64,000 nt of DNA, taken from Bemisia tabaci. Lineage: Eukaryota; Arthropoda; Insecta; Hemiptera; Aleyrodidae. The stretch's first letter is position 1. Every line of letters starts with the position of its first letter. The notes below the pieces were generated by a model that worked only from the letters and a program-made list of their open reading frames with translations, searched no databases and was not told the DNA's origin. A program made the position numbers and the translations under genes. The stretch is from positions 18,091,131-18,155,130 of the forward strand of contig NC_092795.1 in the NCBI RefSeq assembly GCF_918797505.1. Reading direction: 5' to 3'. This document shows, piece by piece, positions 5,291 to 64,000 of the stretch.

Positions 5291-5628
5291 TAAAACACGA
5301 ATTTCCTGGTAAACTTATGAATATTTTTCTTCCAAATTTATCAGATGGTTTTGCTCGCAATTCCACCCAAAGTTCCTGAAAATTTCAAGGAAATACATTC
5401 AGAGCTTTCCTCAAAAATATACATTTTACTGAAGGAAATTTGGCAACGCTCGAATATTCATACGGCGTTCTTCCTTAGCACGGCAGCGCCGCGGGGGAAA
5501 GTTTCCTCGAGACCAAGTTGTTCTTTAATTTTTTCCCTTCGAGATGCCGAGAAAATGGAAGCTGAACATGTGTCCGGGAATTTCCGTTCTAAACACTCGC
5601 TCGGAAGTAATTTGCGAGGAACACGAGG

Positions 5629-34490: not shown

Positions 34491-37400
34491 ATGGCATATG
34501 AGCTGAACAGTATGTACATAAAACGTGAAGCTCCTACGCCCTTAGAAGTGCATTCTCGGAATGTTTGTTTCGTTTGTGGGAGTGCTGGACATCGTGACTA
34601 TTACTGGCTGCGTGTCAAGGCAAACCCAGAAAATCCATCGGAACCTTTTTTTCCATTCTTAAATTGTCATGAACCACCGGCAGGATATCCTGGACCTCTT
34701 CATGATTCAGTCGTAAGTATCATCATAGTCTTGATTGATTGGCCGTTGTTGAACCTTAGTTTGAAACCTAGATGTTTGAATCATGTTCACTTTCTAAAAA
34801 GCAAAGGAGTCAAAAGATTCCTCCGATTTGAAAGCTCATCAGATGATAGACCTATCAGGTCTTACCATCAGCAAGATTAATTGCAATGTTTGATTCAGAG
34901 TACTTATTTGTTTTTGGCACTCTGTAGCACTTGCAGACGGAACATGGTTAGACACTAGACTTCTCTGCAGGTGTCATATCGTGTTTTTCAATAAATAACT
35001 GAACTCAGCTGGTAGAGAAACCAGCCGAAGAGTTTGGAAAATAAATTGTTGTAAGTGTGCTGCATGATGTGTGTCATACAGAGAATCCATTTTGTGTAAA
35101 TAATTTAGAATAGAGGTTGTTGCAAAAATAGCTAACACTAGGGATTAATGACCATGGGTAATCAAAGAAACTGGTACAGGGCTCAATACTCTAAGTGTCA
35201 CTCTGAATGAGTATCTGAGGAACAATTTTCAATGCAGTTTTAGTCAATTGAATAAATACTACCAGAAGAAAAGGCTGACATGTATCTGTCATTTGAAATG
35301 AAAGTAATGTAAAATTGTTTTCATTTTCAGCTCTATGTATTCAAATTGTCAATGGAAAAAGTCAGGGAACATTGATACACTGAAAATCTGAAAATTTTGG
35401 AAAACTATTTTTCCTTAAGTCCATAGACACCCTGCATTGTTTTTTTGCAGAATGCTTTCTCAGTGCATCTTTCTTGAACTGCTTGTCTGTCAGTCGAAAT
35501 TTTTTCGCAGTATGTGTTGCTATTTTTCCAAGGAAAAGATGAAAGTTTCAGGCTTGAAGGGACTTGACATCGATTTTTAATGCCTTCATAATTTTCTCTT
35601 GCCATGGGATACCTTCTTATTTCTAATACTGGGGCTGCTTCACTGATTTTCTCTAGGGGCTCATTATTTTTAAAATGACTCATTAGTAACCCACTATCTC
35701 ATATTCCTTTAAAATGTTTTCAGAGGAAAGTGTCGCTAAGTTGAGAACCTATGTAACATTTATCCTCTGAGATAAAACTTACAAAAGGAGCAAAGATTTT
35801 CAGTATTTAAATGTTTTGCCTCCACGGTGTTAAATCCACAACTAAAATAATTCATAACCCTTCAAAAATGCATTAATATTTTTTAAAGTTTCAGAGATTG
35901 AATAGGAAGGTACCAATTTTGAGGAGAACATTGTCTTATTACCCTTCCCCCTACCTGAAGGTATCAAATTTGGCCATGTTATTAAATTTGAAGTAGCGCT
36001 AAAAATTCCAACAACTGTTAAATTGCATAGTTAATTAGACAATGCTTTAACCAGCATTTTCTTTTCATAGAACTACTTATTCATAATTATTATTAAATTA
36101 ATCATTGGCAGTTTGAATGAATTAAGCGTAATATTTTTACAACTTTTGCTGATGTAGATTTAAAATGGTAAAGAGGTAGAAATATTAAAGAAGTTCACCA
36201 AATTAAATGTCCCGTCCAAATTATTTGTGAATCTGTTTTTAGCTAATCAATCACTATTCAACCTCTGATTTTGTGTATTTATAGTGGGTGATCTATTTCG
36301 CATGTATTCCATGTTCATTCCAAATTTTAATTTCTCCCCATTCCAAGGTTGCTGCCTGCTTCTTGTGCTACTCCCTTTTGTTACAACAATGGGATCGACA
36401 TCAGATGGATGACACACCCCATTCTCAGCGCTTGTATTGGTTGAAGCGCTCTGATAATGGTGCTTTCACCGGTGCAGATATGACATCTCAGGGAGAGTAT
36501 GCGGCTCAGTTGCTTGGCTTAAATCTAGATCCGACTGTACAACGCAGGTATGTTCAAATGAAATTATATTCTCTAAATTCTACATGATGTCTGACTTAAA
36601 TACAGAACCATGAAGGTTGTAGCTGCTTGATAGCATTCAGCATGAACCATCTTTGATAATTATAAATTATAACACCATCTTAATTCAGATCTTTCTAATC
36701 ACTCCTTCTACACTTTTTTTTTTTTTGCTCAGAAACAGACATGTCAGCGTGTCCAGAATTTTTTGAGGTTTGGCTTGACTTGATTTGATTTCACCTTCGA
36801 GTTGTTCTCAATTTCTTGGTATCCCAATGGATCATGATAATTTGAACTTGATTGTCGAGGAATTGATTTTTCAGGATAAAAATAAATTGAAAGCAACTCA
36901 ATTTTTTAGAATTGCACCTTTGTTCCTCTGTGAGCTCCGTTTCTCATCTTTACTCAATGGTGAACTTTCAACATAAAACAAAAGAAACCAGCGAATGGAA
37001 ATTTAACTGTTTTAATATCTTAATGTAAAAGTCAAGGGGGAAAATTGGGACCTTTTTGATTATCTTGATTGTATGTTTGTCAGCTTAGCTATCTAGCAGA
37101 AAAGTCTGGATATTCAGGGTTTCTCCCTGCAGTATTGGCATCTGTATATGGTGATCTTGTAAAGTTACTTTCTACTAGTCCTCACTGGTTTTAGATTGAC
37201 GAAAGGCATGCTTGACGATAGTGCATTAAATTCCAATTAAAATAAAAAAATGTCTCAATGAAGAAAAACAGCTCTTTAGGGCAAAATTGTCTCTCAGAAA
37301 GAATTATTTTTTGATGCATTATTATTTATTAGTCATAGCCAATTCTATTGTTTTCTCAACTCTGTGTACAAGAGGTTATTCAAATACATATTATTTTACC

Positions 37401-40400
37401 TTATGCAAACAGAGTTTTGGACACGAGAATTTCCTTGTGGTTACCGATTTTGTAGTGCTAAAATTTTGAGCATTGATAGTCCACCTGATGTTAACACTTA
37501 AAATATTTTTGCCTCATTCTGCTTCCAAATAGAGAGCCTGCCCCCTCGTTACCGACAGATGAGCAGTCCAATAAACTAATCTTAGCAGGACCAGGAACCA
37601 CCTGCGCCTCCTCGGAGCCGCCTCTGGATCTAACTCAATCTCCATCAACCTCACATTCATTGATGAATGGCGCCAACTCCAACCCAGGTATGCATTTTAT
37701 CTAGGAGTTTATTCCACTGTAGATCTTAAAATTTTAAGCAAATGCTGAACTTTTTCTGTTTCAGTTCTGCTTTACCTCTAATTCCTTTACTCCATTTACA
37801 TCTTTATGCTCAGTAATTTTTAATGGTTTTAAAATCGTATAACTAATTAAATGAAAAGGAAAGGAATTTTGTTTTGCACTTGTTAAACCTCCCTTTATAA
37901 AGCTGCAAAGGGTGAAAATAAAGTAATTATCTTATCTTATCTTATCTTACTCTACTTACATTCAGTATTTAGGACCTTTTTATATATTTTAGGAGAAGCC
38001 CTCATCTTTTATTGATATGATTCATTGAGGAAAGTATTCTTCAACTTTTTATACTTTGCTAACCCTTCCGGATCAAATGTCCCTCCCAGTGTCATGTTTA
38101 CCATCATGTTGTCAGAGCTATTCGACTGTTCAAATTTTCTTCTGTCTCTCTGTGAGGTTCAAGGTTAAAAAAATATGAAGAAAAAACAGATACAAACCTT
38201 TTTGTTTGCTAGATTTCGTAAAGTCTGAAAGGAGTGCATGGTGTCATATTCATCAAAAGTTCATTGAGTTATGACTTTATTACGTGATAATTTACCTTGT
38301 TTTCCTGATTTGTATTTCTTTAGCGTTGGTGAGTGCTATACTATGATCAAGCCAAAATGGTCATAGTATAGCACTCGCCTACGCTAAAGAAATACAAATT
38401 GGGAAAACAAGGTAAATTACCATCTAATAAATCATAATGAATCCTGATCAAGCTAAAATTTCACAATGCTTATGACTTTAGGAGATTTTCTTATTCCGTT
38501 CATCCCAGAAAAATTTATGACCCCAGAAAATCGTCCTATTCTCTTAGTCCCAGACTCAAAATTTTATAATAGTAATTCACTGAATCAGAAAATAATGATT
38601 ACTTAAAGGTATCGATATTCTCAATGAAAGATAGCTTTATGATTTTCATCATGCTTTCATCCAGAAAACACATATTAGTGAGGTTCCATATCTGTATTTC
38701 TCTGATTTTTCTGTTTTGTATAATTTTAGGCAGCTACAGCAGCACCGGAACAGATATTCTGGATCTTTCCATGCCAGACAAAAACTCTCTAACTGAAGTC
38801 TGCTACATCTGCGGTGATGAATTCAAAAGAGGTACTCTTCGCCAGATTGCTGTCAAGCCTCTGACAGATAATAGTCAGTGTTCGACAAGTAACGGCAATC
38901 AGTGCATACCAGCCAGCAAAGAGCCTTACTTTCCCAGCTTAATGTTTCACCCTCGGCCGAGTCGATCTAGACCAGTTGACAGCTCAGGAAGGGTTCAAGC
39001 CTGTGATTTATGTCATTCACATTTGCTGCACCAGTGGCAGGTAAGATCCAAAAATTTTCTCATGATTGATAGACAAACTTGGCATCTCAGCAGTCACAAC
39101 TCATTTGATCAATGATCTGAGGGAGTAAAACTCCCCAAACCCAATAGATGCATTTTGGCGCTTTGCAGTGTTTTAAAAATTAAAATTTTACACAGCTAGT
39201 TGGCAAGGTCTTGAAAATGGTGGGAATTTTGTGGAAAGCTGCAGGAGATTATGTTGGATGATACTGGGTAGGCGTTTGAGAATGTTGAAGGCTAGAAGGT
39301 TCTGCCCCTCTGTGCGCAACTCTTTTTTTTCTCTTTTCTTTGGAAATAGTGACTTGATGTCTTTTTGCTTAACTCAGTTCAAGTGTAATTACTGCCAATA
39401 ACATTCAGCTAATATCAAAATCTAATTTTAAATTTACGTGATCATCGATTGCTATGTCTGATGTTTTTTCTTACTCCTCTCAAGAATATTTTTTGAAAAG
39501 AAATGAGAGATTTAAAATAAATGGGGCAACAAACAATTAATAACTTTGAATAATTTCCTTTTAAAAGAAAATCAGCGAAACAAAATAAAAAAATTTCCAT
39601 CACCAAAACTTGTCTCCATCTAATTTTACCGTTGCACCTGCATACCTAGGTATCTCAGTTCCCACACAAGATTCCGCTTGTTTTTATTATTATTTCATTT
39701 CTTTTTGTTGCTGAACAAAGTAAATCTTGTTTTCAGGCTTACACAGCAGAAGGAATTCCGCACTCCGAGAGGGATTATGTTCTTCGGAAACGAGCCACTC
39801 CTTCGCTTGATTCAACCACTTTTGTTTGTTACACTTGTGGCTTGGAGTATCCATCTAGTTGCCTCAGACTCTTATACTGTTGTCCTAATTCTGAGAAAGA
39901 AGCATATTACCCATTTTTGTATAGTGTGAAGCCACCTCCTGGAGCTAGTCCTATTTCTCCTCAAGGAATGGTTCAAGTAAGTATGTCATAGCCCTTGTTT
40001 CTTAATAAAGGACATTTTCTTGTCTATAGACTCAATCCTAAGTTTTGAATCTGCACCTAGTGTGTTCTTAACTGGAAATAAAAGTATAAATCCACGCAGT
40101 TCCAATTGATCTATCATCGGCACCTTACACTCCAAGACGCAAGTGTCTTGGCATGTGCCAAACCGTGTGTGTGCTAGTAACCTGATGTCCGTCAATTTGC
40201 CCGGACTTTAAAGCCCAACAAAAGTTGAACGAGGCATCAAAAAAAATTAAAATCTACGTTTTTCAACTCAGCTCAGTGAATAGAAAAAGTATTCCAAATT
40301 TCATTCAATTCTGAAGGGGTCAGGTCAAAAAGTGTTAATTTTCGGTCTGATTTGACATGGATTAACCCACAAGTCACTTGTAGTAATCTGGCACTTTTTC

Positions 40401-43400
40401 TGAAGGTCCTGCAACAAATTTCGTCACTTATTAACAATGGATCACTAGACTAGGTACAAATTTACTCGTTCTAATTCTTATATTGATTATTTGATTATTG
40501 ATTTTTGATATTTCAGGTTTGTTCCATATGCTACAAGTCAGTGCCACAGAAACACGCTAGTGGAAGTGCCAGTAACCTGAATGTTACCGTCACCGATGCA
40601 AGGTTACCTACACCCCCTCAGTCGCCCCAAGTGTACTCTCGTCAAGTGAAGTCACCGGCAGACATTCGATTTAAGCCTTATGAAATTTCCAAACACGGCA
40701 AAAACTCAAATACCTCATCCAAACCAAATTCAACCATTGCAAATGCCTCAGTCGTAAGTTCATTTGTAGTTCTGCCTGTAATCTGTTTTGTTGTCGTACA
40801 GAGTGTATGGTTCGAACAAAAGCGATATAACTAGAAAGAGCTGATATGCTATTCAGACATAAAAATATAAAGGATTACCTAAAACATTTCGCACATACAT
40901 TAGTTTTGATGGAAAAAAGGACCTAAGTGTCAAGATTTTCATGATAGTGGCGTTGATGAGTGTACAGAAGTGTTCTATGAAGGTTTTAGCTCAAAAAAGC
41001 TCTAAAATGTAAAAACCAGTGGCGTGGCGTGAATTGCGATGTATCGATTGTTATGCCATTTAAACTTACAGTAAAGAATCGATTATTAAGGTGTTCGCTG
41101 CGAACACCGCAGCGAACACCTTTCCATAGGTTCCTTCCTTTAGGTTCCTTCCATAGGTTCGATCCTTTTCCGTAGGTTTAAATGGCATAACAATCGATTA
41201 ATCAAAATCCACGCCACGCTACTGGTAAAAACTGAATAGAATGCATGACCATCGATATTGTTCAGCTAAAAGAAAGTAGTTTTGAGAAAAATCCAATGAA
41301 CTTCAAATCTGCCCCAAAAACCGTTAGATCACAATGCTTTTTTCTGCCTTGTAATGTGCAAAAAATAGAGCTTTTTAACTGTCAAGAAGCAAGTGATATG
41401 TCTTTGCAAAAAAGAAACGTATTGGGAATTTAAAATATTGCATTTTATGAAAATTCAAATAACTGCAATTAATTTTTTGATTGAATTATGATAATGATAA
41501 ATTATCGTTAACAGGAACAGAGAAATCAGTCGTATTTATTCATTAAGTTCGCTTCATTGTAGAGTCCTACCAAAAAATAAAGTATACAAAAAGATCCTAA
41601 AGTATTCCTATCCGTAACAAAATGGTAAAATAGTGCTCGGTCCACATTATTTTGCTATTTTTCAGTTTTTTCTCTTGTCTCATTCGTACCCATTCAATGA
41701 AGTACCAGAATTCTGTAATTATTTTGAACATATCACATGGTGCTAGCCCCAGGCAGATTTTTGCTTATCATTACTGCACTACTTTTCAAATTTGTCTCAA
41801 TTGAAGTCAAAAGTCTCAAAATTGTTTATTTGTCAATTATTTAATTTAGCTGTCATTCACTGTGCCTATTGAGGTCTGGGAAGCAGTACTGCCCTCGCTC
41901 ACATGGACTTTTCGCTGTAGAGAATATTTTTTTTATAGGAGCTGTCTCAGTTGTAAGTGATCGTGTTTATTGTATTTTTCAGGTTGATTCTCTACCCAGT
42001 AGCACTCCAGCAAGTACGGCAGCTTCAAACGTATCTGGAGTCAACCAAGGACCCTCAATGCAGAGAACAATCTCTGCAGCCTCCGCATCTTCCAGTTACA
42101 ATTGTTATGTTTGTCTAAACTCTGTCCCAGGTTCCCAATTAGAATGGCTCAGTACAAGTGCTGAAGGTTTAAATTCTCATGCTATGCATTTTCCATGCCT
42201 ACGTTACCTATCTAGGTGTGCTATTTTTCATTCTGTTTTTTAAATTTATTTATTTCTTTGCTCCATTTTCCTGTTGGATTCGACATGAGATTTGAATTTG
42301 ACAGACGGTTTCATCACGGTTAAAAGGGCTGTTGTTCTAGTATTGATCAGTGATTTTACAGTTGAAGTACATCAATCAATCAAAAGTTTGACCAAAACTT
42401 TCATTCATAGTTAGGCTTTACGGTACATATGGGTGAGAGTTCATTTGACCCTACTTATTTGCACCCAATTCCGTGCAATTATGTACTCTAGAGGTAGGAG
42501 CCCTATCTCTATATCTACGCTTTGCATTTCATGAATTAATTGGACTGCAATTAGGAACTACTATTTCCGGCTCATTCATAAAGAATATATCTGCCTGAAG
42601 AAACCAATGGCATGGACATGGTTTCTAGTATGAGGCAGAAGTATTAATTCTGTATTGCAAAATGTAGACTTCATACAGTGTAGAATCAATTAATCTTTTT
42701 TTAAATTAATCAATTATTTATTCTTCTATTGGAAAAGGTAAATTTATAGGCTCATTAATGAAATGAATACTAAGCTAGTCAATAGTTGTTTGGCCATTAA
42801 AAATGGTCTGCAACACATTAGCTATCTCAATCCTTGTCACGTCTCTGTCAATTATTTTTATTTGATTATTTTTTATTTTTTGTGTGCCCACCTTTAGGTC
42901 TTCAGAAAATTGCTGCATAGATTCACATGGCCGTGTTCTAACTTGTGTAAATTGCGCGCAGCATTTAGGTAAACAATGGGAATCTATGGAAGCTGAACGG
43001 ATTCCGCTTGAACGTAGGAAGTAAGTGAATCACAATTCCTCCATTTCTAAGTACGTCAGATGAAGTTCCTCTGAAGAAGAAATGCAGCCATTTGTCTTCA
43101 GTTGGACTTTGCCCGCCATGCTGGTTGATTCAACCAGTTTCAATGTATTCTGCAGGCTTGAACAACTGATAAATACTGCTGGTAGTCGCACGCCAATTTT
43201 TCGTTATCAGCTGGGCCCTGCGGAGCATCATATCTCTCGGCATTTAAGTATGCCAGCAACACTTTCCAATGGTCAACAGAGGGAAACACTGTTGTTTTAC
43301 TTACAAGGGGAACTTACGGACCTGTCGCCTCCGATTGGGCTGAATTTTTTTTTACAGACTCTATGGACCAATTCTAGAGGTCAATTTGAGCCGTTTTCCC

Positions 43401-46400
43401 GAATGCGCAATAGGAAGGGCGTAAAAAATTCCCAAAAGTTGCGTTTTCGGCGTGTGATTTGGTCGTGCGGCGCGTGGCAACACTGAAGCAGCCTCTAGTA
43501 CCGCTTTATCGGCCTGAAGGTTTCAGCGGAGTCCGGAGCCCTACTGCACACGTACTGGTTCCATGATAGTGATGTCCCGGGTTCGATCCTTGACTTTTTA
43601 TTTTCCGCCTGATCACGTAACATTTCATTTTTAATTCTTCATCCGCATTGATAAATCAAGCAGTTCCGATCACTATCCTCCCCTCCCTCATTTTACGTAC
43701 ATTTTCCCCCGATATTTATTCACATTGGCCACATATAATCGTATGAAACTTCATTGATATAAATTAATGAATTAAAAAGCAAAGGGCTAAAATAATGTGT
43801 TTCTTGGTGACCCTTGCATGCACATGGGTTTGGGGTTGCTCTTCGATTTATTTACACATTACATATTTTTCCAGGAAAACATTTGAAGATAATGTAGTAA
43901 CAAATAAGGTTTTCTTTTGCTTTTTAATTCATTAATTTATATCAATGAAGTTTCATACGATTATATGTGGCCAATGTGAATAAATATCGGGGGAAAATGT
44001 ACGTAAAATGAGGGAGGGGGGGGGATAGTGATCGGAACTGCTTGATTTATAAATGCGGATGAAGAATTAAAAATAAAATGTTACGTGATCATGCGGAAAA
44101 TAAAAAGTCAAGAAATCGAACCCGGGACATCACTATCATGGAACCAGTACGTGTGCAGTAGGGCTCCGGACTCCGCTAAAACCTTCAGGCCGATAAAGCG
44201 GTACCAGAGGCTGCTTCAGTGTTGCCACACGCCGCACGACCAAATCACACGCCGAAAACGCAACTTTTGGGAATTTTTTACGCCCTTCCTATTGTGCATT
44301 CGGGAAAACGGCTCAAATTGACCTTTAGAATTGGTCCATAGAGTCTGTAAAAAAAAATTCAGCCCAATCGGAGGCGGCAGGTCCGTAAGTTCCCCTTGTC
44401 AGATAACTTGTCAGCATACTGTGTTCGAATTTTCAATGGGCATTTTTTGTGCATTTCTATAGCCTGGCAGGAAATAACTGCCAAGACATCATGGCAAGCA
44501 ATGTGTTGAATGCTTATTTCACGTGGAAACTTGAATGTAAAAATTAATTTATGTGTGTGTCCTTCGTCCTGAAAAACAAACAAAAGAAGTGGAATTTTAT
44601 TTGTCTTTTCTTCCCTTCAATGAAAGTCAATTTCTAACTTTTTTTAAAAAATTAAACAAAATATGTTATATTTTTGACCTCAAAAACATGTCTCTTATTC
44701 AATATTTTAGACTTCTCCTTAAAATATTTTCTTTTTATCTATTCCAGTTACAATTTAGGTGTAAATGGGTCTAGCGTTTGCTCAATAGCTCCAAATAGTA
44801 ACAGTTCTACCTCCTCTTCCATGTATTGCTTCCTGTGTGGTCTTCACTCTGATCTGACTCTCGCTCGAGTCCTCTACGCTCGTCCACAGGTAATTTCTAA
44901 ACCTCAATCTCAATTTTGATCTATCTTCAACCTACAAAGTTTTAATGAAGCATTGAAATCAAGGATCAATCATTTTTATTTTGATTGCATTTTAGTTGCA
45001 CTGATCTTGGAATCGTGATTCCATGGCTGAATATTTTTCATGAGCAATAAATGATAGTACATCACCAAACACTAAGTTCATGTGTCAAGTATGAGGAGAC
45101 GAACTGAATACCCACACAAAACCATCGTTTTGTATGGGAAAGGTCACACAGTGTAGTACCTTAACCAAGGACAAGAGAATAGTTACAACTTCCTAACGAC
45201 TGTCCAGCTGGAGTTCGGCTGGTCAGTTGTTCTTCAAACGACCCCACACAAACTTATTTCGGCTTGAGTGGTCGGAGCTAAGCATGGCTTCTAAACGCCT
45301 GAAGTCCGCAGCGGACATCGCCTTAAAGTCAGCACTTCTCGCCTCGAGTCATAGCTCATCCCGGCGTTGCCAGCTTTCCATGCAAAACAAAAGTTTTGTA
45401 TGGGAATCCGGTTTGTTTCCCCTCACAAGTATGAAAAAATGTACTGTCCTTTGATAAAAAATTGTAGATTTTAATAATTTAACTTCATAAGTTTTTGCTT
45501 TAATTTCCAAAAGTCGCAATGTTTTCATCAAAATTAAATGCCGCATCAGATTTCATGGCAATCTAGAAAACCTGGGTAGTCAATGAATTTGCTGCGACCT
45601 GGAAAAGTCAGGGAATTTCGCAAGTAGTGCGTCAGCTAAGCAACTTCAGCCGGTGCGATTCGAGAATGCAACCAACTTCCGATTGCCTTTTTCCTGAATT
45701 TGAATCGCTACAAGTGGAGATTTTGCCAAGAGTTAAGTAATGGTCAGCATTTCAAAAGATAAAAAATTAAAAGGCAGTTTTAATGGAAAGTCTGGAAAAG
45801 TCAGGGAATCGGACAACGAAGAAATTATGAAAATCTTGAGTTTTTCTTTAAGCTTCGGTGGTGAAGTGGTCTAGGCCATTCACAGCTAGAACTAAAGTCT
45901 CTGGTTCGATCCCTTGAGGTGATGATATTTGAGGGTCCAATACTGCTTGGCATAAGGTACAAAAATTGTAAACATTGTGAATTAACAAGAGGGCAATGGA
46001 CCGCTGTGCTATTTTTCTCTGATGAAGGAAATCAGTGAAAATGTAGTTGCTGCTCTTAAATACAGATACGTATGTGAACATGTGATACCTACTGAATTTA
46101 CTTTTTGTAATTTTCTTGACCTTTACCCTTCCATATCACTTAAAAGAGTCAGTGTCCATTTAATGAGTGTTAACCAAGTGATTTTTTCTCTTTTTTTCAG
46201 GGTCGCAATGCACCTTATTTTCCCTCGCTCCTGCAACATAAGTCACCTTTGAATGCAGAGCAGTTGAGAGATGACAAGTCAGCCTTAGTTTGTACATTTT
46301 GTTACCACTCAATGGTGTCCCAATGGCGTCGCTATGAGCAGACAAGCACACCAAGCGACGATCGTCATTACAATTTTCATGATTATTCATGTAGTTTATG

Positions 46401-49400
46401 TAAAACCATTACATATAGACGCAGAGTTCGTGCTTTACCTGTAAAAGTATGTAGAATTTTATATTATCAGTTATTTCTATTTGGAACTGCAATCTCTTTC
46501 AATTGCAATTTCCATTCTAATTGTAATTAGCTAGTGAAGTAAAAGCTCGATTCACTTGATTTTACTGCGCAGTGGATTTTCTCCAGGTATCTGCTCAACC
46601 CCTTCTAAGAACAACCTTTAATTAAAAGGAATTTACAGGGGTTTTTTTTTTTTTTGGGGGGGGGGGGGTTCAGTGGCAGAATTTTAGCTCAAACTGTTTG
46701 ATTTTTTCTGAAATTTCCTAATATTTGGGTGCAGAAGGTCTTTTTTGGCTAGTGTAGAGCATTTACTATATGAATTGCTGAATATCGAGTAGTCTCACTC
46801 TCAAAAAGTTTCACTCAGACTTCGATACTTGTAATATTTTCTTGCTAAAAATTATAACAATGATTAGGAAGAAAATCAAGTGATGCAGTAAGTACATTAT
46901 TTTTTGTACATTTGATGCATTCAAAAACATAGCGCTGAATATTATTTAATGTACCTCTCTTTTATTGTTTCAGGATTATTCATTCATTCTGCATCAAGTT
47001 GACAAGCCTCTACTCATCGAAAATAACGATTACGCAGTAGTGTGTCTAGATTGTTATGAAACGTTGAGAAAACAAGCGTTAGAATATGAACGATGGGGCC
47101 TTCCAGTAGATAAAAGAGAATATAATTGGCTTGCTCAACCTCCTCCGCCTGAAGACAGCCCAGAAGTGTCAGTTGCAAGATTACCCTCGGGTCAACGGTC
47201 TGATAAAATAGTAAGTTTCTGCGCAAGCAATGATTATTTTTCTCTGAGGCTCATATGAAGACGTATTAAGTTGTTTTAAGCGTTAATTTCATTGTACCAA
47301 TTTTTGCATAATTCCAGAGGGCAATTTACTCAAGTAGCAGGACAGAGATATCCTGTAGGAAAAAAAACTGACACTTTCCTGTGACTAGAAACATTCAGAG
47401 CTGCCTGTATTTTTTCTATTACCTTTTTTTTAATTAATCAAAGAAAACTCATCTGTGCTAAGCAAAGAAAGTAATTCGTGAGAAATGGTGTTGAGGGTCA
47501 GGGCCTGACTGCTATTTTTTTTTTAGCTCTAGTTTGAGCAACTTTATTGATTTCCAAGGCTGTATGTGAACCTTCAAAAAAATGGATGAGATTGGAATTC
47601 CAAACATTTTTGTACCTTAGTGGGTACTTACAGTTTTTAGAAGATGCATTACGAATGACAGCTGTTCAAAATGACCAAGAGCATGTTTTGGGGATATGTC
47701 AGGTGCTGGCACTTAATAATTGTTCCTTGTATGATTTCTTTAGCCTGAATTGCCTCTACTGCTAACTTGTCGAGTTACCTCACTCATAGATACATTCTAA
47801 CAAAGCAATTCTTCTTTAACTGTTTTTATAGGTTCCAGTATCCTTACCAAATCGATCCAGTAATAAAAATGGTCCATCGAAACAGGCTGATAGGAAAAGC
47901 TCAAGTCTACAAATGCAAAATCCCTCCGGCAAATTAGATCAAGGTAAGAAATTTTCCTTTAATGTTTGCTCTTCTTTTTGTGCATGATGCTTTTAAAGTT
48001 ATCAGCATAATTATTTAAAAGATGCGTTATTTAACTCAACAAAGTTGGCTGTAATTGATACATGATCATGACAACAGTCGCAAAAGTAAACAATAATCAA
48101 AAGCTGAGCACCTAGCTAACATTCCCAAACCTTGGTGAGTTGTTGAGCAGTCTTTGATTCCTCAAATTACACGTATTGACTGCCAGTTTTCTGCCATTTT
48201 TGCAAGTGTTTTTTTCTTTTTTCCATTGAAATTTTTACTCAAGAAAAAGCAAAGGATCAGAATACCTTCTCTAGTTCAAGACCATGTTTTTGACTCGCAA
48301 AAAGAAGCTGCATGGAGTATTTATGAAAACAAAAGAAAGTACTAAAATTAAGCGTTAAGGAGATTTTCAATGAGATTACAGAGGATCAATTCTACAATTC
48401 TGTTTGTAAGAGTGGTATGTATTATCGAAAGCAGAAGTACTTACGGAACTGGATAAAGTACTTTGAAAAACATCCTGACCTGCAAATTAATTTAGAGGGT
48501 AGCAGAAAGAAGATCAAAACTTGTAGACTTGGTATACTCTTAAAAACTTAAGGGTGCATCATCTTACCCTTCACCCTTCACCAATATTTTTTTAACATTC
48601 TAGCAAATGGAGCAGAAGGATTTAACCTTCAAGTCGTAACTAATATTATATCTGTAGTGTCATCAGTTTTGAAATGGTAGTTTCAGCCTACTTTCTTTTT
48701 GGGACAATCAGCATACAGCCAAAGTTTTTAGCTTCCTTTTTGAAACCTAATAAGTAATCCAAGGCTCTTGGTAGATTTCAACCCAAGGTTATACCCAACA
48801 AGAAGTGATAGAACCACATCTAAAAATAAGTAGCCCCCGTGGATTACAAGAATGTGGAACAGGGGCCTTTCAGGAATATGATTTGGAAAGTTTTTGATTA
48901 TTCTTACATTTGAAAAATTTCTAATCCATGTCGTTTTAAATTTTCAAAAAGTCTTTGGTATGATCTATTTTGGAGTTAATTAAGTAGATAAATGGTAATC
49001 ATCATGAAAGTAATTTATATTTTTAGTTTATGGGATCGAAAAGTTTCGAAGCTTTTGTTTCCTCAAAATATGTGAAAAAAATATCACAGAGAAAAAATGT
49101 TTGCCTCGTTGATGGACCGACAGTAATTTATTTTTTGCGGAAAATTAAACTTGACTCTAAATCCTCAAGTACCTTCAAATTGTTGGCTACTATACCTGTT
49201 TTTGCTGTTGCCCTCCCAGTTTATTTACCATTATTTTATTTTCGTCCCTCATTATAATTTTTCTACACGTTAATTTTTTCCATCTATTTTATGGATCTAA
49301 TCCAATCTAAGTTAGGGATGGTTGGGTTAGGAAAAATTGGATTAATGAAACACCAGGGACATTAAGGACGTTTTGAATTAGGATTGAGGACACATTGGTG

Positions 49401-52400
49401 ATACTAGGGACGTTAGGAATATTAGAGAAAGGCGCAAGAGTCGGTTAGGACAGATGGGATTAGCCCTTGTGTGCTAGTTGAACTGCGTTTAACAGAAAGG
49501 AACCAATCCACATTATCTATTGCCAAATTTAACCGGGCAATTTAATTTTTTACGAGAGGACGTTCTTGCGGATTCTTTCAAAAATTTTGAAGAATTTGCT
49601 TAGCACTATGGAGAAAATTCACTGAAATTTGCACATAAATCCGCAAAATAGTTTTCTTGTATAAAATTAAATTGCCCAGTTAAATTTGGCAATAGCTGAT
49701 GTGGCTTGATTCATTTCTGTTTAACGCAGTCCAGTTGAAGTTTAATAAAAAATTTAAAATAACAAAAATCCAACGGAGTCACTAAACATTAAATTTTTTT
49801 TCTCCCTTAAAAAAAAAATTAAGAAAAAAATTTAACGTTTAGTGACTCGGTTGAATTTTTGTTATTTTAACATCAAAATTAAGGTTAAACAGGAAGCATC
49901 GACTTTTTTTAACTCAGCCCTGAGAAAACGAGAAATACCTGGGTACCCATCATCAGAGGGGAAGTTTCACCTTGTAAGTGGTGGTTTGATTGATGTGTTG
50001 TCAGGAACGAGGGTGATAAAGCGGAAGCTCGCCGGCACAAAGGGACGAGGGATGCTTTTCTTTATCGACACCTCTTTTCTTCTCGCGTATCACCCCCCGC
50101 GCCCCTCCTCCGCGTCCGCCCGCAACCCTCCGTCGCGTCGTCACCCCGTCAGTCCATCATCGGCGGCCGTCCCTCCCTCCGCCGCCGTCCGCATCCGCTC
50201 TCGGGTTCCGCGAGAAATCCCGATCGAGCTGCGACATCTCGCGAGAAAAAACAATAACATCGTTTGTTGTCAAAATGGTGGCGGCGGCCCGCCTGTCGGT
50301 TTCGTGCAGAATTTCGCGAAAAAATCGAGTTTTCCCGTGCGTGTCGCTCAGTTTTCCGCGCGCGACAGTGTTTCCTTGCGTTTCCGGGCTATTCCAAGTG
50401 TTTTCGGTTTGAATGCGTGTCCCAACACAGCGGAATCGGCCTCCCTCGGTTCGATCCAAGTTTTTAGGTTAATCTCTACCTTGAAAATTTTTCTCACTTC
50501 GAGCTACTACCTTCCTTTATCGCCTGTCCGTACTTGTTTCCAAATAGCCCTCAATCCATTCGGGTTGATTACGGCTCAATCTGCTGCCCCTGTGTGAAAA
50601 AAGTTCAAGAGAGGGCTTGCAAATTTCTCATCTCAAATCCTATCACAACAACTGATTATCAATTCGCATTTCAGTTTTTATCACGCACCTATCGCCTCAA
50701 TTCTATAGCCCTTTTCTCATTTCTCACAAAGCAAAGCAGATTGGGAATTGATCAAAGACTAATCTCTGCACTTAACAAACTAAGATCACTCTGCTGTGAT
50801 CTCATTGAGAACTGACGGCTGTTAATATTTAGCTTTTCTCGGAACATCTGACCTCTGAGCATAATCGATTGAAGTTTCTACGATTTCAATTTATTCGATC
50901 GTAGTCGGTATCCACCATTCAATCTATGGCAGCATCTTGATCATAAATTCCTATTTTTCATGATTAGGTATTTTGTGTCAGGTTTTTTATGCTCCTTGCT
51001 TGAGATTGATTCAGTGAGCACTAAATTTTAGCTGTTCCTTCTTTTGTATTTTCTCCGTTAGTTCTTAGCCCTCAGGTTGGTGTGATTATTGCGAGGTGTA
51101 GAATGTATCACTGATGAATACCCAGAGAGAGTTTTCATTCATTATTGGAACAGACTTAATTTTTAGATCTGTTTGGTGGTCGTTAACACTTGAGCAGATA
51201 GTTTTCTATTTGGAAAGGTTTAAAACAAGACTGTCATTCTACCCGCGTCTTGACAGCTTATTTCCACTGATTGTAATGAAGTTCATTAATTAAATATGTT
51301 CTTTTAATTTATGCTCAGAGTGATGATGCTAAGTGAACATGAATTTTTTTTAGTGGAAGAGTCTTGAGTGTGAAAAATTTTCATCCATTCATTTGTGCAT
51401 TAAACCTGTGATAATTAGCGACCGCGTATCGGCTTTTTATGTGCGCGTACTCTCGGTAATCTGTGTTCGATATGGATTTTAACCGTCCGGGTCTAAATCC
51501 GCATGTCCCGGGACCAATGGTTCCTCCAAATATGAGCAATCTTCTCTACTACCAAGGTTTGTTTTAAGTAACTTGTTTGCTTAATTTGAAAATCTGTTGT
51601 GTTCTTCAATAATCCACAAGCTACCACAACAATCAAATTGGTCCGCAGGTTACTTTGTTGAGTCTTATCTGCTTTTCACATAGCAAGCATCTCTTGATTT
51701 CATCAGAATGAGAACGTTTATAGAAATGGTAGAAAAATGGGGATTGTTGTGAGTTTAGAAAGAACAAGGTAGTAAGGACGGTTGCTGAACAGCTAAACGG
51801 GATCAACTCTTGAGAGCTATATGAATTAAAAGAAAAAAAGGATGTACTTATCTTAGTATTGAATGAGCAAAAAAGCCTCCATATTCACGTTTCCTTGTAA
51901 AATTCTTGTATTTTAGCGAGAAAATTGGGTATAAATTTAAAGTAGGGAAATGCTGTGGTTGTTCCGAAGGAAAAATTAATATGATTGAAAAATTTATAGG
52001 CAGGGCAATGGAGAGTGTTGTTTTGCCACTAGACACCTTGAACAAATTCTTAGCAGAGTGATTAAAATCCTTTGCAGATAACCTTCCATGGTTGAATCCC
52101 ATATTTTCTATGTACCTAAACCATAAACGTATTCAAGTTAGAAAAAATGGATACTTTCATGCGGTTAACAACTTAAGCCCATGCTGCTTGGTTTGTTCTG
52201 AAATGTCTTGAGAGATTTTGGTTCCTGCTTAACTGAAGCATCCATTCCATCAATTCTGATTTGAAATGATGTTTTATTAAAATTTTAAGTCCTTAATGTT
52301 CAAATTTTAACCTTCGATCATTATCTTTCTGTTACAGGGTTGGTCAAATCCCCAGCAGGAGGAGTCGGGACGAAACCACACCATCATACCATACCTGGCC

Positions 52401-54889
52401 CGGGTCCTGGGCCCGGTCCTGGCCCTGGGGCTCCGCCCTCGCAGAGCTCAGGGAATCGTTCCTTTGCAGCCGCTTTACGTAACTTAGCCAAGCAGGCTGG
52501 CCCAACCAATGATAGGAATGAAAACGATTCCGAGAGAGTCAGTTCACCCAAAACGCGAGGTCCTCCTCAGCCACTAGTCAGGGGTGCGTCACCCCAACCA
52601 TTGAAAGGGCAGGATAAAGACCGCCCTGTACCTAATATTGGCTCTGAGCAGAGGAGCGGTTTTCAGCCGTACAGACCGCCTGAGGATGGGAGAGGTCCGG
52701 TTTCGGTGAACGTTTCACCTGCCGGAGCTTCTCCTCATCCTGCGTTTACCCTAGATCCCTCGGCAGCAGCAGCGGCTGCTGCTTACAATCCCTATCACCA
52801 TCCTCCCACTGCCGCTGCTCTGTATCCACCTCACCTTCAGCATCCATATCGGTGAGTAATCTTGTCACGCACTGTGAATTTTTAAGCATACTGAATAATC
52901 CTATGTCTTGGTTACTTACTGTATCCAAAACATTTTGTTCTTTTTCTTATTTTATCTCATTTTAATTTTTTTTTCTTTTTATTTAGAAGGAAAAAAAATA
53001 TCCTCAATACTTCATTCAAAAGTTTCAGATTTTTGGTGGTAGGTACCTACCTTTGAGAGGTCAAGAGAAATAATGCAAAATCTCATTCATAATCAAAAAT
53101 TCAGTTAAAAGAAGTTAAGTGTGATTTGCTAACTAATCAAGATGTAGGATTTTTCTAGTTTTGTCATTGATATTGCAAGGTTCTTGCAGATAGTGAAAAT
53201 ACGGTCTTCGGTGTTTTCTAAACCTGTCATTGTACTAGAAATACTCAAATTTTGAAAAATCGATGAAATATACTTTGACCATCTTGAAATTTTTAAAGAA
53301 AGGACAATATCACCCTTAAAAAACCTGTGAAAGTAGGAAAAAATGTAGGGGTGCAGAAAAAGCCTGGTCTCACAGGTATGAAGCAATTTTCAAAAGTGAT
53401 AACCTTCCTTTTTTCCCCCATTTCTTCAGAAAAGGGTGACAAATAGTTCATATTATTGAGAAATTCGGCTCATTGCCACAATGTAAGATGTTGACCATGA
53501 GGCAAATCCAAACTATGCTGTAAGACCCAAGTACCAAATTATGGCAAACTGTGGGCATTTTGAAAATTTTTTCATCCCTGATGGAACTTACTCAAATTGA
53601 CGAGTATAATGTCGCAGACAGGTCTGCCTACCATTAACAAGGCCCTAGGCTCTAAACTACTGTCTGTCTCTGTTAGATTGGCAATGTTTTAATGTAAAAA
53701 TGGACCACAAAATTTTCAAATAGAATTTTTGGCATGTCAAATGCCCGGAAGCACTAAATTTTTACCAGGAATGGATATCAGGAAGTTTAAATAGGGTACT
53801 GTGCCTTTCAGCAGTACGATTGTTGAAATTTATGTTGGCACGACAAGAATCGAAAATCGATAAATTACATGGCATAGATAGGGCTATGTCTTGTCTTATC
53901 GTGCCAACATAGCCAGTTAAAGTTTCAACAATCCTGCTGCAGGTCTCTAAATGGACACCTTCTCTCCCTTTTCTTGCGGTTTAAAGTCATAATTCAAACT
54001 CATATCACCTTATATTAAAGATTATACATGTCTCTCTGTAAGTATGTGCAATTATCTCAGGATATCATACCTATAAAGAAAGCTGCTGATTTTAGCCCTT
54101 GTAAGGAACGCCCATTTAGATGAAGTTATGTATTCAACTCATCATTTCCCTGACAAACAGAAAGATATTTCGGCTTTATGAATGTAAGTATGTAAGTTTT
54201 TCAAAAAATGAATTTTTTTTTTGAAGGTTTGAGACAGAATGTAATCATGCTGCCCTCTGCATTATGTGAGCAAGTCATTTACTGCTCCTCTTCTTTTATC
54301 CATTCCTGAAGGTTTTCATGTGTACTTACCTTTAATGTGTACCTACCTCAGTGTTCTAAACTCACAGGCGCCAAATGCGCCTAAGAAATCGGTCATGGCG
54401 CCTAAAAACTGAAGGCTCTGCGCCAACCTGGCCCCTAAAAAATTACCCCCCCCCCCCCAAAAAAAAAAAATCCCAATTTTTCTGTTTCGTGGTTTTTTGA
54501 AATCTCTCTTAAGTTACTGTTACTAGTTCTGTAACGAAAACATCTTGCGTCTAACTTTTCAGTAAGTGCGCTGTAATGTACAGGCAAAAAGTGAATTTGG
54601 CCCAAAAAAAATCTTCAATGGCCCCTAAAAATCGAGTTTGATGCGCCACATGGCTCCTGAAACTCAAGGGTGAGTTTCCAACACTGACCTTATTGTAAAC
54701 TTTCAAATTTGTATGCCCTTGAAAGTATGTAGCATGTGTTCATTATTTAATACCATTTCTGTGTTTCAGTTTGGATGACCACTTATACTTAGAGCGATGT
54801 GGTATGTCCCTTTTCCCTCCTTACCCTCCTGCTTTATACGGATTAATGCCAACCCCTCTGGGACTCATGACTCCATCAATGCATGAAAG
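34491..54889 (+). CDS. GSE1: GSE1-like protein with N-terminal six-module CxxC region (long form, 3' incomplete)
   Basis: Exons: 34459-34712 (ATG 34491), 36348-36547, 37533-37687, 38730-39040, 39737-39976, 40517-40753, 41983-42215, 42898-43020, 44748-44889, 46201-46446, 46974-47210, 47832-47943, 52338-52851, 54770-54889. All GT-AG boundaries agree in phase and give about 1,030 codons, continuing past the window. The first twelve encode six modules, each a CxxC, then [YF][FYS]PxL, then a CxxC often followed by LxxQW (e.g. [42 protein letters not shown]). Probably zinc-binding. Exon 3 is Ser/Pro-rich. The 52.3 kb exon contains [16 protein letters not shown], matching vertebrate GSE1 SSSFAAALRKLAKQA. 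It also has a Gly-Pro run, an Ala run and FQPYRPPED, followed by [12 protein letters not shown], like the GSE1 region around FRPY and MDD. GSE1 is a nuclear factor linked to HDAC/CoREST corepressors. That the two halves are one gene is inferred from the phase-1 junction. Confidence 0.75.
37922..37950. repeat. TTATC microsatellite
   Basis: About five tandem TTATC units in the intron after exon 3, preceded by GTGAAAATAAAG. Such a tail could be the 3' end of a truncated non-LTR element, but no RT sequence is visible. Confidence 0.6.
38288..38419. repeat. long near-perfect intronic hairpin
   Basis: Arms of about 61 bp (38,288-38,348 and 38,359-38,419) pair almost completely around a loop of about 10 bases. 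Outer ends are TAATTTACCTTGTTTTCC / GGAAAACAAGGTAAATTA-like and inner ends are CATAGTATAGCACTC-like. It lies in the intron upstream of the 38.7 kb exon. It could be a small MITE or a hairpin RNA (miRNA-like or siRNA precursor). No other copy was noticed in the window. Confidence 0.75.
41017..41224. mobile_element. hAT-type MITE (CAGTGGCG family), copy 2
   Basis: A 208-bp element starting CAGTGGCGTGGCGTGAAT and ending CACGCCACGCTACTG. It is flanked by a perfect 8-bp duplication GTAAAAAC (41,009-41,016 and 41,225-41,232). Compared with copy 1 it has a duplicated centre: GCAGCGAACACC repeated and three CATAGGTTC/TTAGGTTC-like units near 41,125-41,180. It is in the intron between the 40.5 and 42.0 kb exons of the GSE1-like gene. 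Confidence 0.9.
43156..43302 (+). pseudogene. cassette exon of the GSE1-like gene interrupted by a foldback element
   Basis: An acceptor (TTCTGCAG at 43,155) opens an exon that continues the previous exon in phase (AA|G) and reads [16 protein letters not shown] and on to [10 protein letters not shown]. At 43,303 the 1,097-bp foldback element begins. Reading on into the element gives about 60 residues of element-derived sequence before a stop at about 43,486. Beyond the element, the frame that would continue LLFYL stays open for about 30 codons (..[14 protein letters not shown]..) to a stop at about 44,511, possibly the rest of the exon. The preceding exon (end 43,020) and the next one (44,748) are phase-compatible with each other, so skipping this exon restores a full-length protein. 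Confidence 0.5.
43303..44399. mobile_element. 1,097-bp foldback transposon in the GSE1-like gene
   Basis: Two arms of about 485 bp (43,303 to about 43,787 and about 43,914-44,399) are near-perfect reverse complements around a loop of about 126 bp. The ends read ACAAGGGGAACTTACGG. The arms include TTTTACGCCC, GTGATTTGGTCGTGCGG and GGGTTCGATCC, the last resembling a pol III B box. No transposase, and no convincing target duplication: flanks end ACTT on the left, with ACTT 6 bp beyond the right end. Arm identity is high, so the insertion is recent or the arms are kept alike by gene conversion. Confidence 0.85.
45852..45922 (+). other. tRNA-like sequence (tRNA-derived SINE head or tRNA pseudogene)
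   Basis: Contains an A-box-like TGGTGAAGTGG near its start and a B-box GGTTCGATCCC at 45,903-45,913 with normal tRNA spacing. The acceptor stem does not pair well, so a functional tRNA is unlikely. It most likely derives from a SINE. It lies in the intron before the 46.2 kb exon. Confidence 0.5.
47944..49476. other. intron of the GSE1-like long form, no exon recognised
   Basis: AT-rich intron following the 47.8 kb exon. Open frames here are short and show no known motif. Confidence 0.45.
49477..49737. mobile_element. about 260-bp inverted-repeat element
   Basis: The left arm runs GTTGAACTGCGTTTAACAG and then CTATTGCCAAATTTAACC. The right arm mirrors it (GGTTAAATTTGGCAATAG-like, then CTGTTTAACGCAGTCCAG). 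Arms are about 75-80 bp with small mismatches. A fragment of the inner part is seen at 11,530. MITE-like, with no target duplication identified. Confidence 0.65.
49755..49871. repeat. second inverted repeat adjacent to the first
   Basis: Arms AAAATAACAAAAATCCAACG and GTTGAATTTTTGTTATTTT, each continued by GAGTCACTAAAC / GTTTAGTGACTC, surround an A/T-rich centre. It lies 18 bp from the preceding inverted repeat and about 0.25 kb upstream of the CpG-rich promoter. Confidence 0.65.
50090..50470 (+). promoter_or_regulatory. CpG-rich internal promoter of the GSE1-like short form
   Basis: A sharp local rise in G+C and CpG (CCGCGTCCGCCC, GCGTCGTCACC, GGCGGCCGTCCC and similar) stands out in the AT-rich intron, about 1-1.4 kb upstream of an alternative coding first exon. 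The stretch from here to 51,471 could be 5' UTR, spliced or continuous. A 251-codon open frame across it is Ser/Pro/Arg-rich, starts in an AT-rich repeat, and is judged non-coding. No TATA or initiator is claimed. Confidence 0.5.
51472..51556 (+). CDS. GSE1: alternative first coding exon, GSE1-like short form
   Basis: ATG at 51,472 reads [16 protein letters not shown], then NMSNLLYYQ, and ends in phase 1 at the donor CCAAG|GTTTG. It splices in frame to the 52,338 exon (GLVKSPAGG..). The 47,832-47,943 exon of the long form also ends in phase 1 (KLDQ-G), so both starts can use the same GSE1-homologous exons. The short form would lack all CxxC modules and so resemble vertebrate GSE1 more closely. 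It depends on the CpG-rich region just upstream for transcription (inferred). Confidence 0.65.
52852..54769. other. intron with repeat fragments
   Basis: Intron between the two GSE1-homologous exons. It holds the inverted repeat at 53,809-53,941 and, near 54,365-54,665, a stretch with repeated TGGC(G/C)CCTAAAAA words plus a C run followed by an A run. No additional exon recognised. Confidence 0.5.
53809..53941. repeat. inverted repeat, MITE-like
   Basis: The left arm CAGCAGTACGATTGTTGAAA continues to TATGTTGGCACGACAAGA. It is mirrored by CTTGTCTTATCGTGCCAACATA and TTTCAACAATCCTGCTGC on the right. Arms are about 40-50 bp, imperfect, with a spacer of about 41 bp. No coding capacity. Confidence 0.6.
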
Positions 54890-57900: not shown

Positions 57901-57981
57901 CGTTTATGAATATTAAGCTTATATTCATATATACAAGAATCGGGTGTTTTCTGGGATGAGGCGAAACTAGTATGATCTTTT
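54960..57981. repeat. satellite-like tandem array, about 455-bp unit (part 1)
   Basis: Five closely similar units (about 455-457 bp apart, judged by TTTACTGCGATAC at about 55,855, 56,310, 56,767, 57,222 and 57,679) follow one or two clearly diverged copies at 54,960-55,640. Each unit includes TTTTTACCGCGATTTTGAGG, TATCGCGTAATTTAGG, CTCGCGATTTTATGATG, AAGTGGAACCCAAGTGAGC, and ends CGGACGTTTATGAATATTAA. Divergence is greatest at the outer edge and least inside, as expected for unequal exchange. Conserved 68-codon open frames on both strands come from sequence identity, not coding. The array lies in the intron downstream of the 54.8 kb GSE1-like exon. Confidence 0.93.
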
Positions 57982-63400: not shown

Positions 63401-64000
63401 GAATTCGGTTTAGAAATCGCTTACTTCTCGCGATTTTATGATGAATTTTGCGTAATTTCGCTCTTTTTAACAAGTGGAACCCAAGTGAGCAACTATTCGA
63501 ACTCCAGAGTAGGTTTGTGGTATCACGCGAAATTGAAGGAAAATCATAGCTCTTAGCCTATCTCAAGTTACGGACGTTTATGAATATTAAGCTTATATTC
63601 AAACAAGAATCGGGTGTTTTCCGGGATGAGGCGAAACTAGTGTGATCTTATTTTTTTATTATAATGAACACCTGTAAAAGTACTTTTTTACCGCGATTTT
63701 GAGGTAAACTACGCGTAATTTTCAATAATCTCACAAAATAGCTTTTTCCCCGCATTATCACTGAGAGTATCGCGTAATTTAGGTAATATTGCAATAAAAA
63801 TGACTTGTTTACTGCGATACCGAGATGTAGAGCGTGTAATTTCCTAGGATTCAAAGAATTCGGTTTAGAAATCGCGTACCTCTCGCGATTTTATGATGAA
63901 TTTTGCGTAATTTCGCTCTTTTTAACAAGTGGAACCCAAGTGAGCAACTATTCGAACTCCAGAGTAGGTTTGTGGTATCACGCGAAATTGAAGGAAAATC
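60455..64000. repeat. satellite-like tandem array, about 455-bp unit (part 2, runs off window)
   Basis: About eight further units, with TTTACTGCGATAC at about 60,614, 61,072, 61,524, 61,988, 62,443, 62,898, 63,353 and 63,808. Variants fall into recurring types: GAATTCGGTTTAGAAATC, GAATTCGGTGGAGGAATC, and ACAGCGATG with TTGCACGCG. These alternate along the array and appear recombined in some units (for example near 61,985). The array continues beyond the window end, so its length and the next GSE1-like exon are unknown. Confidence 0.93.

What the first reader, a model, noticed from the sequence alone, without database searches (positions are those of the whole stretch)
34491..54889. Six-module CxxC repeat protein fused in frame to a GSE1 homologue
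Twelve phase-consistent exons encode six modules: paired CxxC motifs around a [YF][FYS]PxL core, the second pair often followed by LxxQW. They end in phase 1 (KLDQ-G) and can splice straight to the exon carrying [16 protein letters not shown], a clear GSE1 signature. The vertebrate GSE1 I know lacks such a Cys-rich front half. The repeated module looks like an unnamed zinc-binding domain that may recruit partners to a corepressor.
Basis: partly seen in the sequence, partly recalled or inferred. Interest (0 to 1): 0.75.

Follow-up and report, generated by a model that had tools for sequence, protein, structure and literature searches.

The report
Plexus: the full-length GSE1 protein
This insect gene is the counterpart of the fruit-fly wing-vein gene plexus, and plexus appears to be the insect form of the human chromatin protein GSE1, whose predicted long forms in other vertebrates carry a similar row of cysteine-rich, probably zinc-holding domains.

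Summary
Twelve exons with consistent phase (34491-47943) encode six homologous double-CxxC modules and join in frame to GSE1 exons (52338-54889). It is a known gene: the orthologue of Drosophila plexus (px). Of 120 listed relatives, 57 carry both halves in one protein, some on contigs barely longer than the coding sequence.

Of 23 GSE1-type proteins of 1500 aa or more in the two GSE1 searches, 22 carry the modules; 15 of these are non-arthropods (ten vertebrates, four molluscs, a ribbon worm). Arthropods typically have six modules, the more complete others five. A second coding first exon (51472-51556), about 1 kb downstream of a GC-rich stretch, could give a short GSE1 form; similar N-termini occur in other insects and, more loosely, in vertebrates.

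The module has no Pfam, NCBIfam or significant PDB match. AlphaFold2 gives six mostly confident small folds. Most likely function: Plexus is the arthropod GSE1, a CoREST/LSD1/HDAC1 scaffold, and the modules recruit partners or target it. One paper says plexus has no human homologue, yet px, lsd1 and CoRest all repress wing veins. The gene is ordinary; the link is useful and testable.

The parts
34491..34712 (+). exon 1 coding (start ATG), first CxxC and FFPFL core of module 1
   Evidence: N-terminus [13 protein letters not shown] resembles MALENNSGGMYIKRE of P0001
36348..36547 (+). exon 2, second CxxC and LLLQQW helix of module 1, then LYWLKR
   Evidence: module 1 profile
37533..37687 (+). exon 3, linker with PPLDLT motif
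38730..39040 (+). exon 4, [11 protein letters not shown] plus the whole of module 2 (CYIC..YFPSL..CDLC..QW)
   Evidence: AlphaFold2 of this exon; LDLSMP in 85 of 120 relatives
39737..39976 (+). exon 5, first part of module 3 (CYTC..YYPFL)
40517..40753 (+). exon 6, second CxxC of module 3
41983..42215 (+). exon 7, first part of module 4 (CYVC..HFPCL)
42898..43020 (+). exon 8, second CxxC and QW of module 4
44748..44889 (+). exon 9, first CxxC of module 5
46201..46446 (+). exon 10, YFPSL, second CxxC and QW of module 5; first CxxC of module 6
46974..47210 (+). exon 11, second CxxC of module 6 and PPPPEDSPE tail
47832..47943 (+). exon 12, linker ending KLDQ-G, phase 1 donor
   Evidence: P0020 reads KTDLGLVKP at the matching place
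49801..50600 (+). GC-rich, CpG-rich stretch, candidate promoter of the short GSE1 form
   Evidence: GC up to 0.60 and CpG obs/exp up to 1.53 against medians 0.37 and 0.63; not unique, three other places before 55 kb have obs/exp of 1.2 or more with GC of 0.45 or more; promoter role inferred
51472..51556 (+). alternative first coding exon [29 protein letters not shown], phase 1 donor
   Evidence: resembles N-termini of P0121, P0125, P0131, P0142, P0143
52338..52851 (+). exon 13, first GSE1 exon: [16 protein letters not shown] and SGFQPYR
54770..54889 (+). exon 14, GSE1 ([14 protein letters not shown]); gene continues beyond the window

Best explanation
The locus is the orthologue of Drosophila plexus, and plexus is the arthropod orthologue of GSE1 in its full-length form. 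Shown by sequence: an N-terminal array of six homologous double-CxxC modules that can be joined in frame to the GSE1 half, plus a second coding first exon placed so that it could give a short, GSE1-only product. Inferred: each module is a small zinc-binding fold with a CxxC-hairpin-CxxC-helix order; the GSE1 half docks into the CoREST-LSD1-HDAC1 corepressor as in mammals; the array recruits partners (CtBP through PLDLT/LDLS motifs is one guess) or targets the complex. Choice of promoter would set whether the scaffold carries its targeting array. In flies this would keep vein genes off in intervein cells.
For: Identity: best relatives are named px, Plexus or GSE-like and several align end to end. 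One protein: 57 of 120 listed relatives have at least 6 CxxC plus a GSE1 signature, including P0069 (1204 aa, longest contig 3835 bases) and P0002 (1162 aa, 4006 bases), too short for an intron-bearing gene. DUF3736, the GSE1 domain, is found in fused P0039, P0082, P0095 and unnamed P0067 and in all 5 of 5 fused bird, shark, mollusc, nemertean and tick proteins scanned. Modules: 15 of 15 pairs homologous, 12 controls negative; all 24 cysteines invariant or at least 90% conserved in 48 sequences; six folded modules in AlphaFold2, 10-residue blocks mostly at pLDDT 80-97, one block of 58 inside module 4. Deep conservation: arthropod module profiles hit all 15 non-arthropod GSE1s that have at least 6 CxxC (best domain per protein 2e-29 to 9e-17), 0 of 85 shuffles. 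Two starts. Function: GSE1 binds CoREST with HDAC1/2 and LSD1 and is proposed as a scaffold (PMC10681733, passages); GSE1 listed as BHC/CoREST (PMC9884267, passage) and as a BRAF-HDAC subunit (PMC5352222, passages); intervein cells mutant for lsd1 or CoRest adopt vein fate (PMC7601384, passage); px mutation raises rhomboid expression (PMC5004906, passage).
Against: No transcript of this organism was seen. DUF3736 and the C-terminal coiled coil lie beyond the window, and DUF3736 was not detected in six of the seven relatives scanned (P0001, P0003, P0018, P0020, P0080, P0102) nor in Drosophila P0105 and P0109. 63 of 120 listed relatives show no GSE1 signature; 11 of these, decapod-type, end in a conserved tail of their own, so the Cys-rich half can stand alone, at least as an isoform. 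A polyadenylation-like AATAAA lies at 49744, between the halves. Vertebrate long isoforms are mostly predicted models; their last module is only weakly like M6, and the LDLS motif is not found in them. No paper found shows Plexus in a CoREST complex; a term search of the GSE1-CoREST paper showed no mention of such modules. Zinc is not shown: AlphaFold2 places no metal and the PDB gave no significant match.
Confidence: 0.72

Rival explanations
1. Two neighbouring genes: a stand-alone Cys-rich gene (34.5-47.9 kb) and a GSE1 gene with its own promoter near 50 kb; the in-frame junction is chance or rare read-through.
For: CpG-rich stretch and own start codon at 50-51.5 kb; 11 of 120 relatives, decapod-type, end in their own conserved tail without GSE1; many GSE1-only proteins exist (48 of 205 fetched have the helix in the first 130 residues and fewer than two CxxC); AATAAA at 49744 and eight ATTAAA between the halves.
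Against: 57 of 120 relatives carry both in one protein, some on contigs hardly longer than the coding sequence; the same union is found in molluscs, a nemertean, a tick and vertebrates. Reading through the exon 12 donor gives 14 residues and a stop; I did not search systematically for an alternative last exon.
Confidence: 0.06
2. An insect or arthropod gene fusion: the Cys-rich array was joined to GSE1 only in this lineage.
For: Human canonical GSE1 (recalled) and the lamprey and fish models lack the modules (0 CxxC in P0126-P0128); spider P0144, annelid P0161 and mollusc P0153 models lack them.
Against: 15 non-arthropod GSE1 proteins carry homologous modules; 22 of 23 proteins of 1500 aa or more from the two GSE1 searches do; an M1-like module comes first in the five mollusc and nemertean proteins and in the five most complete vertebrate ones.
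Confidence: 0.03
3. One fused gene, but the short GSE1-type product does the CoREST work and the Cys-rich array has an unrelated role, for example in the nuclear matrix or in DNA/RNA binding.
For: Plexus is described as a nuclear matrix protein (PMC8864742, passage); the GSE1-CoREST paper PMC10681733 showed no mention of a Cys-rich or N-terminal domain in a term search; weak structural rows include ribosomal proteins and FYVE domains.
Against: px and lsd1/CoRest losses act in the same direction in the wing; the two halves have stayed together across bilaterians.
Confidence: 0.19

Closest known systems
Drosophila Plexus (px), nuclear matrix protein that represses wing vein fate
   Same: Six modules in order M1-M6 in D. 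mauritiana and D. simulans proteins P0158 and P0162, with the GSE1 helix and SGFQPY. [quoted passage not shown]
   Different: 46% identity over 648 aligned residues of the Cys-rich part of P0158; the fly protein is longer (1912 aa), with longer linkers between modules.
GSE1 (genetic suppressor element 1), CoREST/BHC subunit of vertebrates
   Same: FAAALRxLA helix; DUF3736 in related fused proteins; predicted long isoforms also carry homologous modules, five in the more complete ones.
   Different: The short vertebrate isoforms start at or near MSHEPKSPS without modules; the vertebrate last module is only weakly like M6.
Mollusc and nemertean GSE1-like proteins (P0146, P0150, P0152, P0155, P0186)
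   Same: Modules plus GSE1 half in one protein; modules 1, 3, 4 and 5 score best with arthropod M1, M4, M5 and M6.
   Different: Five modules; the second is about equally like several arthropod modules, so one arthropod module is extra or has been lost elsewhere.
Zinc folds with a CxxC-hairpin-CxxC-helix order (FYVE, ZAD; ribosomal eL24, this name recalled)
   Same: Same order of elements in the model; FYVE, ZAD and ribosomal chains appear among the weak rows.

Membership tests
Plexus / GSE1 family | SFAAALRxLAKQ helix at the start of the GSE1 half | tested here: met
   52338-52851, [16 protein letters not shown]; helix in 52 of 120 relatives, which also have at least 6 CxxC, and in vertebrate GSE1
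Plexus / GSE1 family | SGFQPYR motif and following segment | tested here: met
   GSE1 half aligns to P0121 (56% over 173 aa) and P0001 (49% over 191)
Plexus / GSE1 family | DUF3736 (PF12540) and C-terminal coiled coil | not testable with these tools
   Gene runs out of the window after 54889; own genome could not be reached. DUF3736 present in relatives P0039, P0067, P0082, P0095, P0121 and not detected in eight others scanned
Plexus / GSE1 family | Array of double-CxxC modules with QW helix | tested here: met
   12 CxxC, 15 of 15 module pairs homologous
Plexus / GSE1 family | Both halves on one transcript | tested here: inconclusive
   Not tested in this species; supported in relatives by proteins on contigs hardly longer than the coding sequence
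CoREST/LSD1 corepressor subunit | Physical association with RCOR, LSD1 and HDAC1 | not testable with these tools
   Reported for mammalian GSE1 (PMC10681733, PMC9884267); not found for Plexus
Zinc-binding domain | Four conserved ligands in one fold | tested here: inconclusive
   All 24 Cys invariant or at least 90% conserved; folded modules predicted; metal geometry not examined
FYVE / ZAD / other named zinc domain | Match to a curated domain or solved fold | tested here: inconclusive
   Pfam: none for the window protein at E up to 1, zinc families in relatives only at E 0.018 or worse and below cut-off, e.g. zf-AD 0.019 in P0186; NCBIfam none for three proteins; fold searches weak

The most novel reading that the evidence does not exclude
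The classic fly gene plexus is GSE1, and the ancestral bilaterian GSE1 was a two-promoter gene whose long product carries five or six zinc modules. Mammals keep it as an overlooked long GSE1 isoform, so studies of GSE1 as a CoREST scaffold may have looked at the form without its targeting array, and plexus is the missing fly CoREST subunit behind the ectopic-vein phenotype.
Probability: 0.55. Interest if true: 0.72.

Novelty: new member of a known kind. Interest (0 to 1): 0.58.

Why it matters
Plexus is a classical wing-vein gene that one paper lists as having no human orthologue (PMC8864742, table and text passages). If it is GSE1, fly genetics becomes available for a human CoREST subunit, and the shared direction of px, lsd1 and CoRest wing effects gets a direct biochemical test. 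It also points to a protein module without a Pfam entry that sits in predicted long isoforms of vertebrate GSE1, and to a possible second promoter that decides whether the corepressor scaffold carries it.

Tried and rejected
Considered and rejected: chance CxxC pairs (shuffles); an arthropod-only fusion; an insect-only fusion, which the decapod models suggested at first until the tick, mollusc and vertebrate fused proteins were seen.

Paper searches for a plexus-GSE1 link or for the long GSE1 form. Nothing that states the link was seen in these listings or in the passages read. The original plexus paper (Matakatsu 1999) was not read; it is known here through papers that cite it.

Limits: one search listed 120 of 265 hits and only those were counted. 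One search used a query rich in simple sequence and gave 12 hits. In some searches only the roughly 8000 candidates sharing most words were scored. BLAST E-values are for a database of about 205 proteins, with residues 1-858 of the window protein taken as the Cys-rich part. The first module slices (72 of 121 sequences) held misregistered rows and were replaced by a stricter set of 60 of 121, window included. The vertebrate module profiles rest on three proteins. The first shuffle test counted overlapping matches and was redone.

Full report
What is there. Fourteen exons from 34491 to 54889 give an open frame of 1030 aa, with GT donors at all 14 and AG at the 13 acceptors used. The first twelve encode 819 aa with 12 CxxC motifs in six modules. 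The pattern CxxC - aromatic-Pro core - CxxC fits five separate places, modules 1-5; 6 of 5000 shuffles held one. Profiles built from 60 sequences with regular spacing show that all 15 pairs of modules are related (hhalign probability 95.5-99.6%), while the same modules against a linker and against the GSE1 segment gave at most 1.3% in 12 comparisons. Module 6 lacks the PxL core, and QW follows the second pair in four of the six modules.

What gene it is. A protein search with the whole spliced product gave 265 hits, of which 120 were listed and examined. The species names visible in that list are all arthropods, and gene names include 'uncharacterized protein px', 'Plexus' and 'genetic suppressor element-like'. 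Planococcus citri P0001 covers 100% of the query at 50% identity. The gene is therefore the orthologue of Drosophila plexus. Of the 120, 71 have exactly 12 CxxC and 57 carry at least six CxxC together with a GSE1 signature (FAAALRxLA-like helix or SGFQPY[RK]); 63 show no such signature. The latter include models marked partial, and 11 decapod-type proteins (two without a species name) that share a conserved end, ELQ[AT]KCS or close to it, with no GSE1 half. Some fused proteins lie on contigs barely longer than their coding sequence, for example P0069 (1204 aa, 3835 bases) and P0002 (1162 aa, 4006 bases); from this I infer spliced transcripts. DUF3736 was detected in fused P0039, P0067, P0082 and P0095 but not in P0001, P0003, P0018, P0020, P0080, P0102 or Drosophila P0105 and P0109.

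How far it reaches. A search with an alignment of insect GSE1 halves gave 105 hits. Among the 85 proteins new in this and the preceding GSE1 search, 23 have six or more CxxC: eight arthropods (including the tick Ixodes, P0205), four bivalve molluscs, one nemertean and ten vertebrates (loach, caecilian, frog, emu, peafowl, shark and four mammals). Of the 23 proteins of 1500 aa or more, 22 have them; of the 62 shorter ones, one does. Arthropod module profiles hit all 15 non-arthropods (best domain per protein 2e-29 to 9e-17; cut-off 0.01), with none of 85 shuffled sequences hit. An M1-like module comes first in the five mollusc and nemertean proteins and in the five most complete vertebrate ones; an M6 hit closes the array in the five former and in 6 of the 10 vertebrates, and not in the tick. 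Molluscs and the nemertean have five modules, and so do the more complete vertebrate models. The mollusc/nemertean set matches arthropod M1, an ambiguous one, M4, M5 and M6; the vertebrate set (three proteins) matches less clearly, its last module only weakly M6. Direct BLAST of the window's Cys-rich part gives 3e-55 with scallop P0146 and 4e-23 with shark P0202 in a small database. Against this, spider P0144, annelid P0161 and mollusc P0153 models are of the short type, and the vertebrate long isoforms are mostly predicted models.

Two starts. Between the halves lies a GC-rich stretch (GC up to 0.60, CpG observed/expected up to 1.53 against a median of 0.63); three other places before 55 kb are also CpG-rich by the same measure. 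About 1 kb downstream is a short first coding exon, MDFNRPG...LLYYQ, that ends in the same phase as exon 12. Similar N-termini begin GSE1-only proteins: MDYNRLPP..FYYPGLAKP (P0121), MDFRAPHP..YYYSGL (P0142), MEFRAPHP..YYYPGL (P0143, no species name), MEYRGPAP..FYPGV (P0131). Nine named vertebrate short forms have YYLPG or FYLPG at a like place, for example MFGLKPPLYYLPG-MSHEPK in P0156. In all, 14 of 48 short-type proteins have such a motif and 34 do not. I infer an internal promoter that yields a short GSE1 form, possibly ancestral.

Structure. AlphaFold2 of exon 4 alone (module 2, 25 sequences) gives 10-residue blocks at pLDDT 81-93 in the module except a loop at 54-68. The whole relative P0020 (48 sequences) shows six folded modules, blocks mostly at 80-97 with one of 58 inside module 4, separated by disordered linkers; the GSE1 part is largely disordered apart from helices. 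All 24 cysteines are invariant or at least 90% conserved in the 48 sequences. The order, CxxC, beta hairpin, short helix, strand, CxxC, long helix, recalls treble-clef zinc folds. Weak PDB rows include FYVE, ribosomal proteins and the ZAD of a Drosophila protein, but none is significant. Zinc binding remains inferred.

Function. Mammalian GSE1 is reported as a CoREST partner with HDAC1/2 and LSD1 and a proposed scaffold that brings in USP22 (PMC10681733, start of abstract in listing and passages), and is listed as BHC/CoREST in PMC9884267 (passage) and as a BRAF-HDAC subunit in PMC5352222 (passages). Fly intervein cells mutant for lsd1 or CoRest take vein fate (PMC7601384, passage); px mutation raises rhomboid (PMC5004906, passage); [quoted passage not shown]). 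Those two motif regions map to the module array and to a charged stretch in the GSE1 half. One paper states that plexus has no human orthologue (PMC8864742, passages). The simplest reading is that Plexus is fly GSE1 acting with CoREST-LSD1, the array serving to recruit or target. PLDLT and LDLSMP motifs (LDLSMP in 85 of 120) resemble the CtBP-binding motif, which I recall and did not test; an LDLS is also present in the four molluscs but no such motif was seen in the six vertebrate proteins looked at.

Verdict. What remains of interest is the plexus = GSE1 identity, not found stated in the papers searched although automatic database names hint at it, the module without a Pfam entry, and the possible promoter switch.

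Noticed in passing
window 55466-57979 and 60457-64000: Two arrays of a 455-bp tandem repeat (5.5 and 7.8 copies, 96-97% matches), probably inside the next GSE1 intron; a short CRAC-containing open frame recurs in the units.
   Followed up: no
window 43300-44402: Foldback element of about 1.1 kb with nested inverted repeats (288, 107 and 95 nt, 96-99% complementary) in the intron between exons 8 and 9.
   Followed up: no
window 38276-38431, 41015-41226, 49479-49894: Four more hairpin-like inverted repeats (68-122 nt arms, 79-89% complementary) in introns.
   Followed up: no
window 4601-5400: Another CpG-rich stretch (GC up to 0.58, observed/expected up to 1.62), about 30 kb upstream of exon 1: possible promoter of the long form or of another gene.
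   Followed up: no
relatives P0080, P0081, P0083, P0086, P0087, P0092, P0094, P0098, P0103, P0110, P0113: Decapod-type Plexus proteins (P0092 and P0103 without a species name) share a conserved C-terminal tail ending ELQ[AT]KCS or close to it, in place of the GSE1 half: an alternative last exon or a gene split.
   Followed up: partly
window 37533-37687 and 38730-39040: PLDLT and [11 protein letters not shown] motifs between modules 1 and 2, resembling CtBP-binding motifs (recalled); LDLSMP is in 85 of 120 relatives, and an LDLS motif is at a like place in the four fused molluscs, not in the vertebrate proteins looked at.
   Followed up: partly
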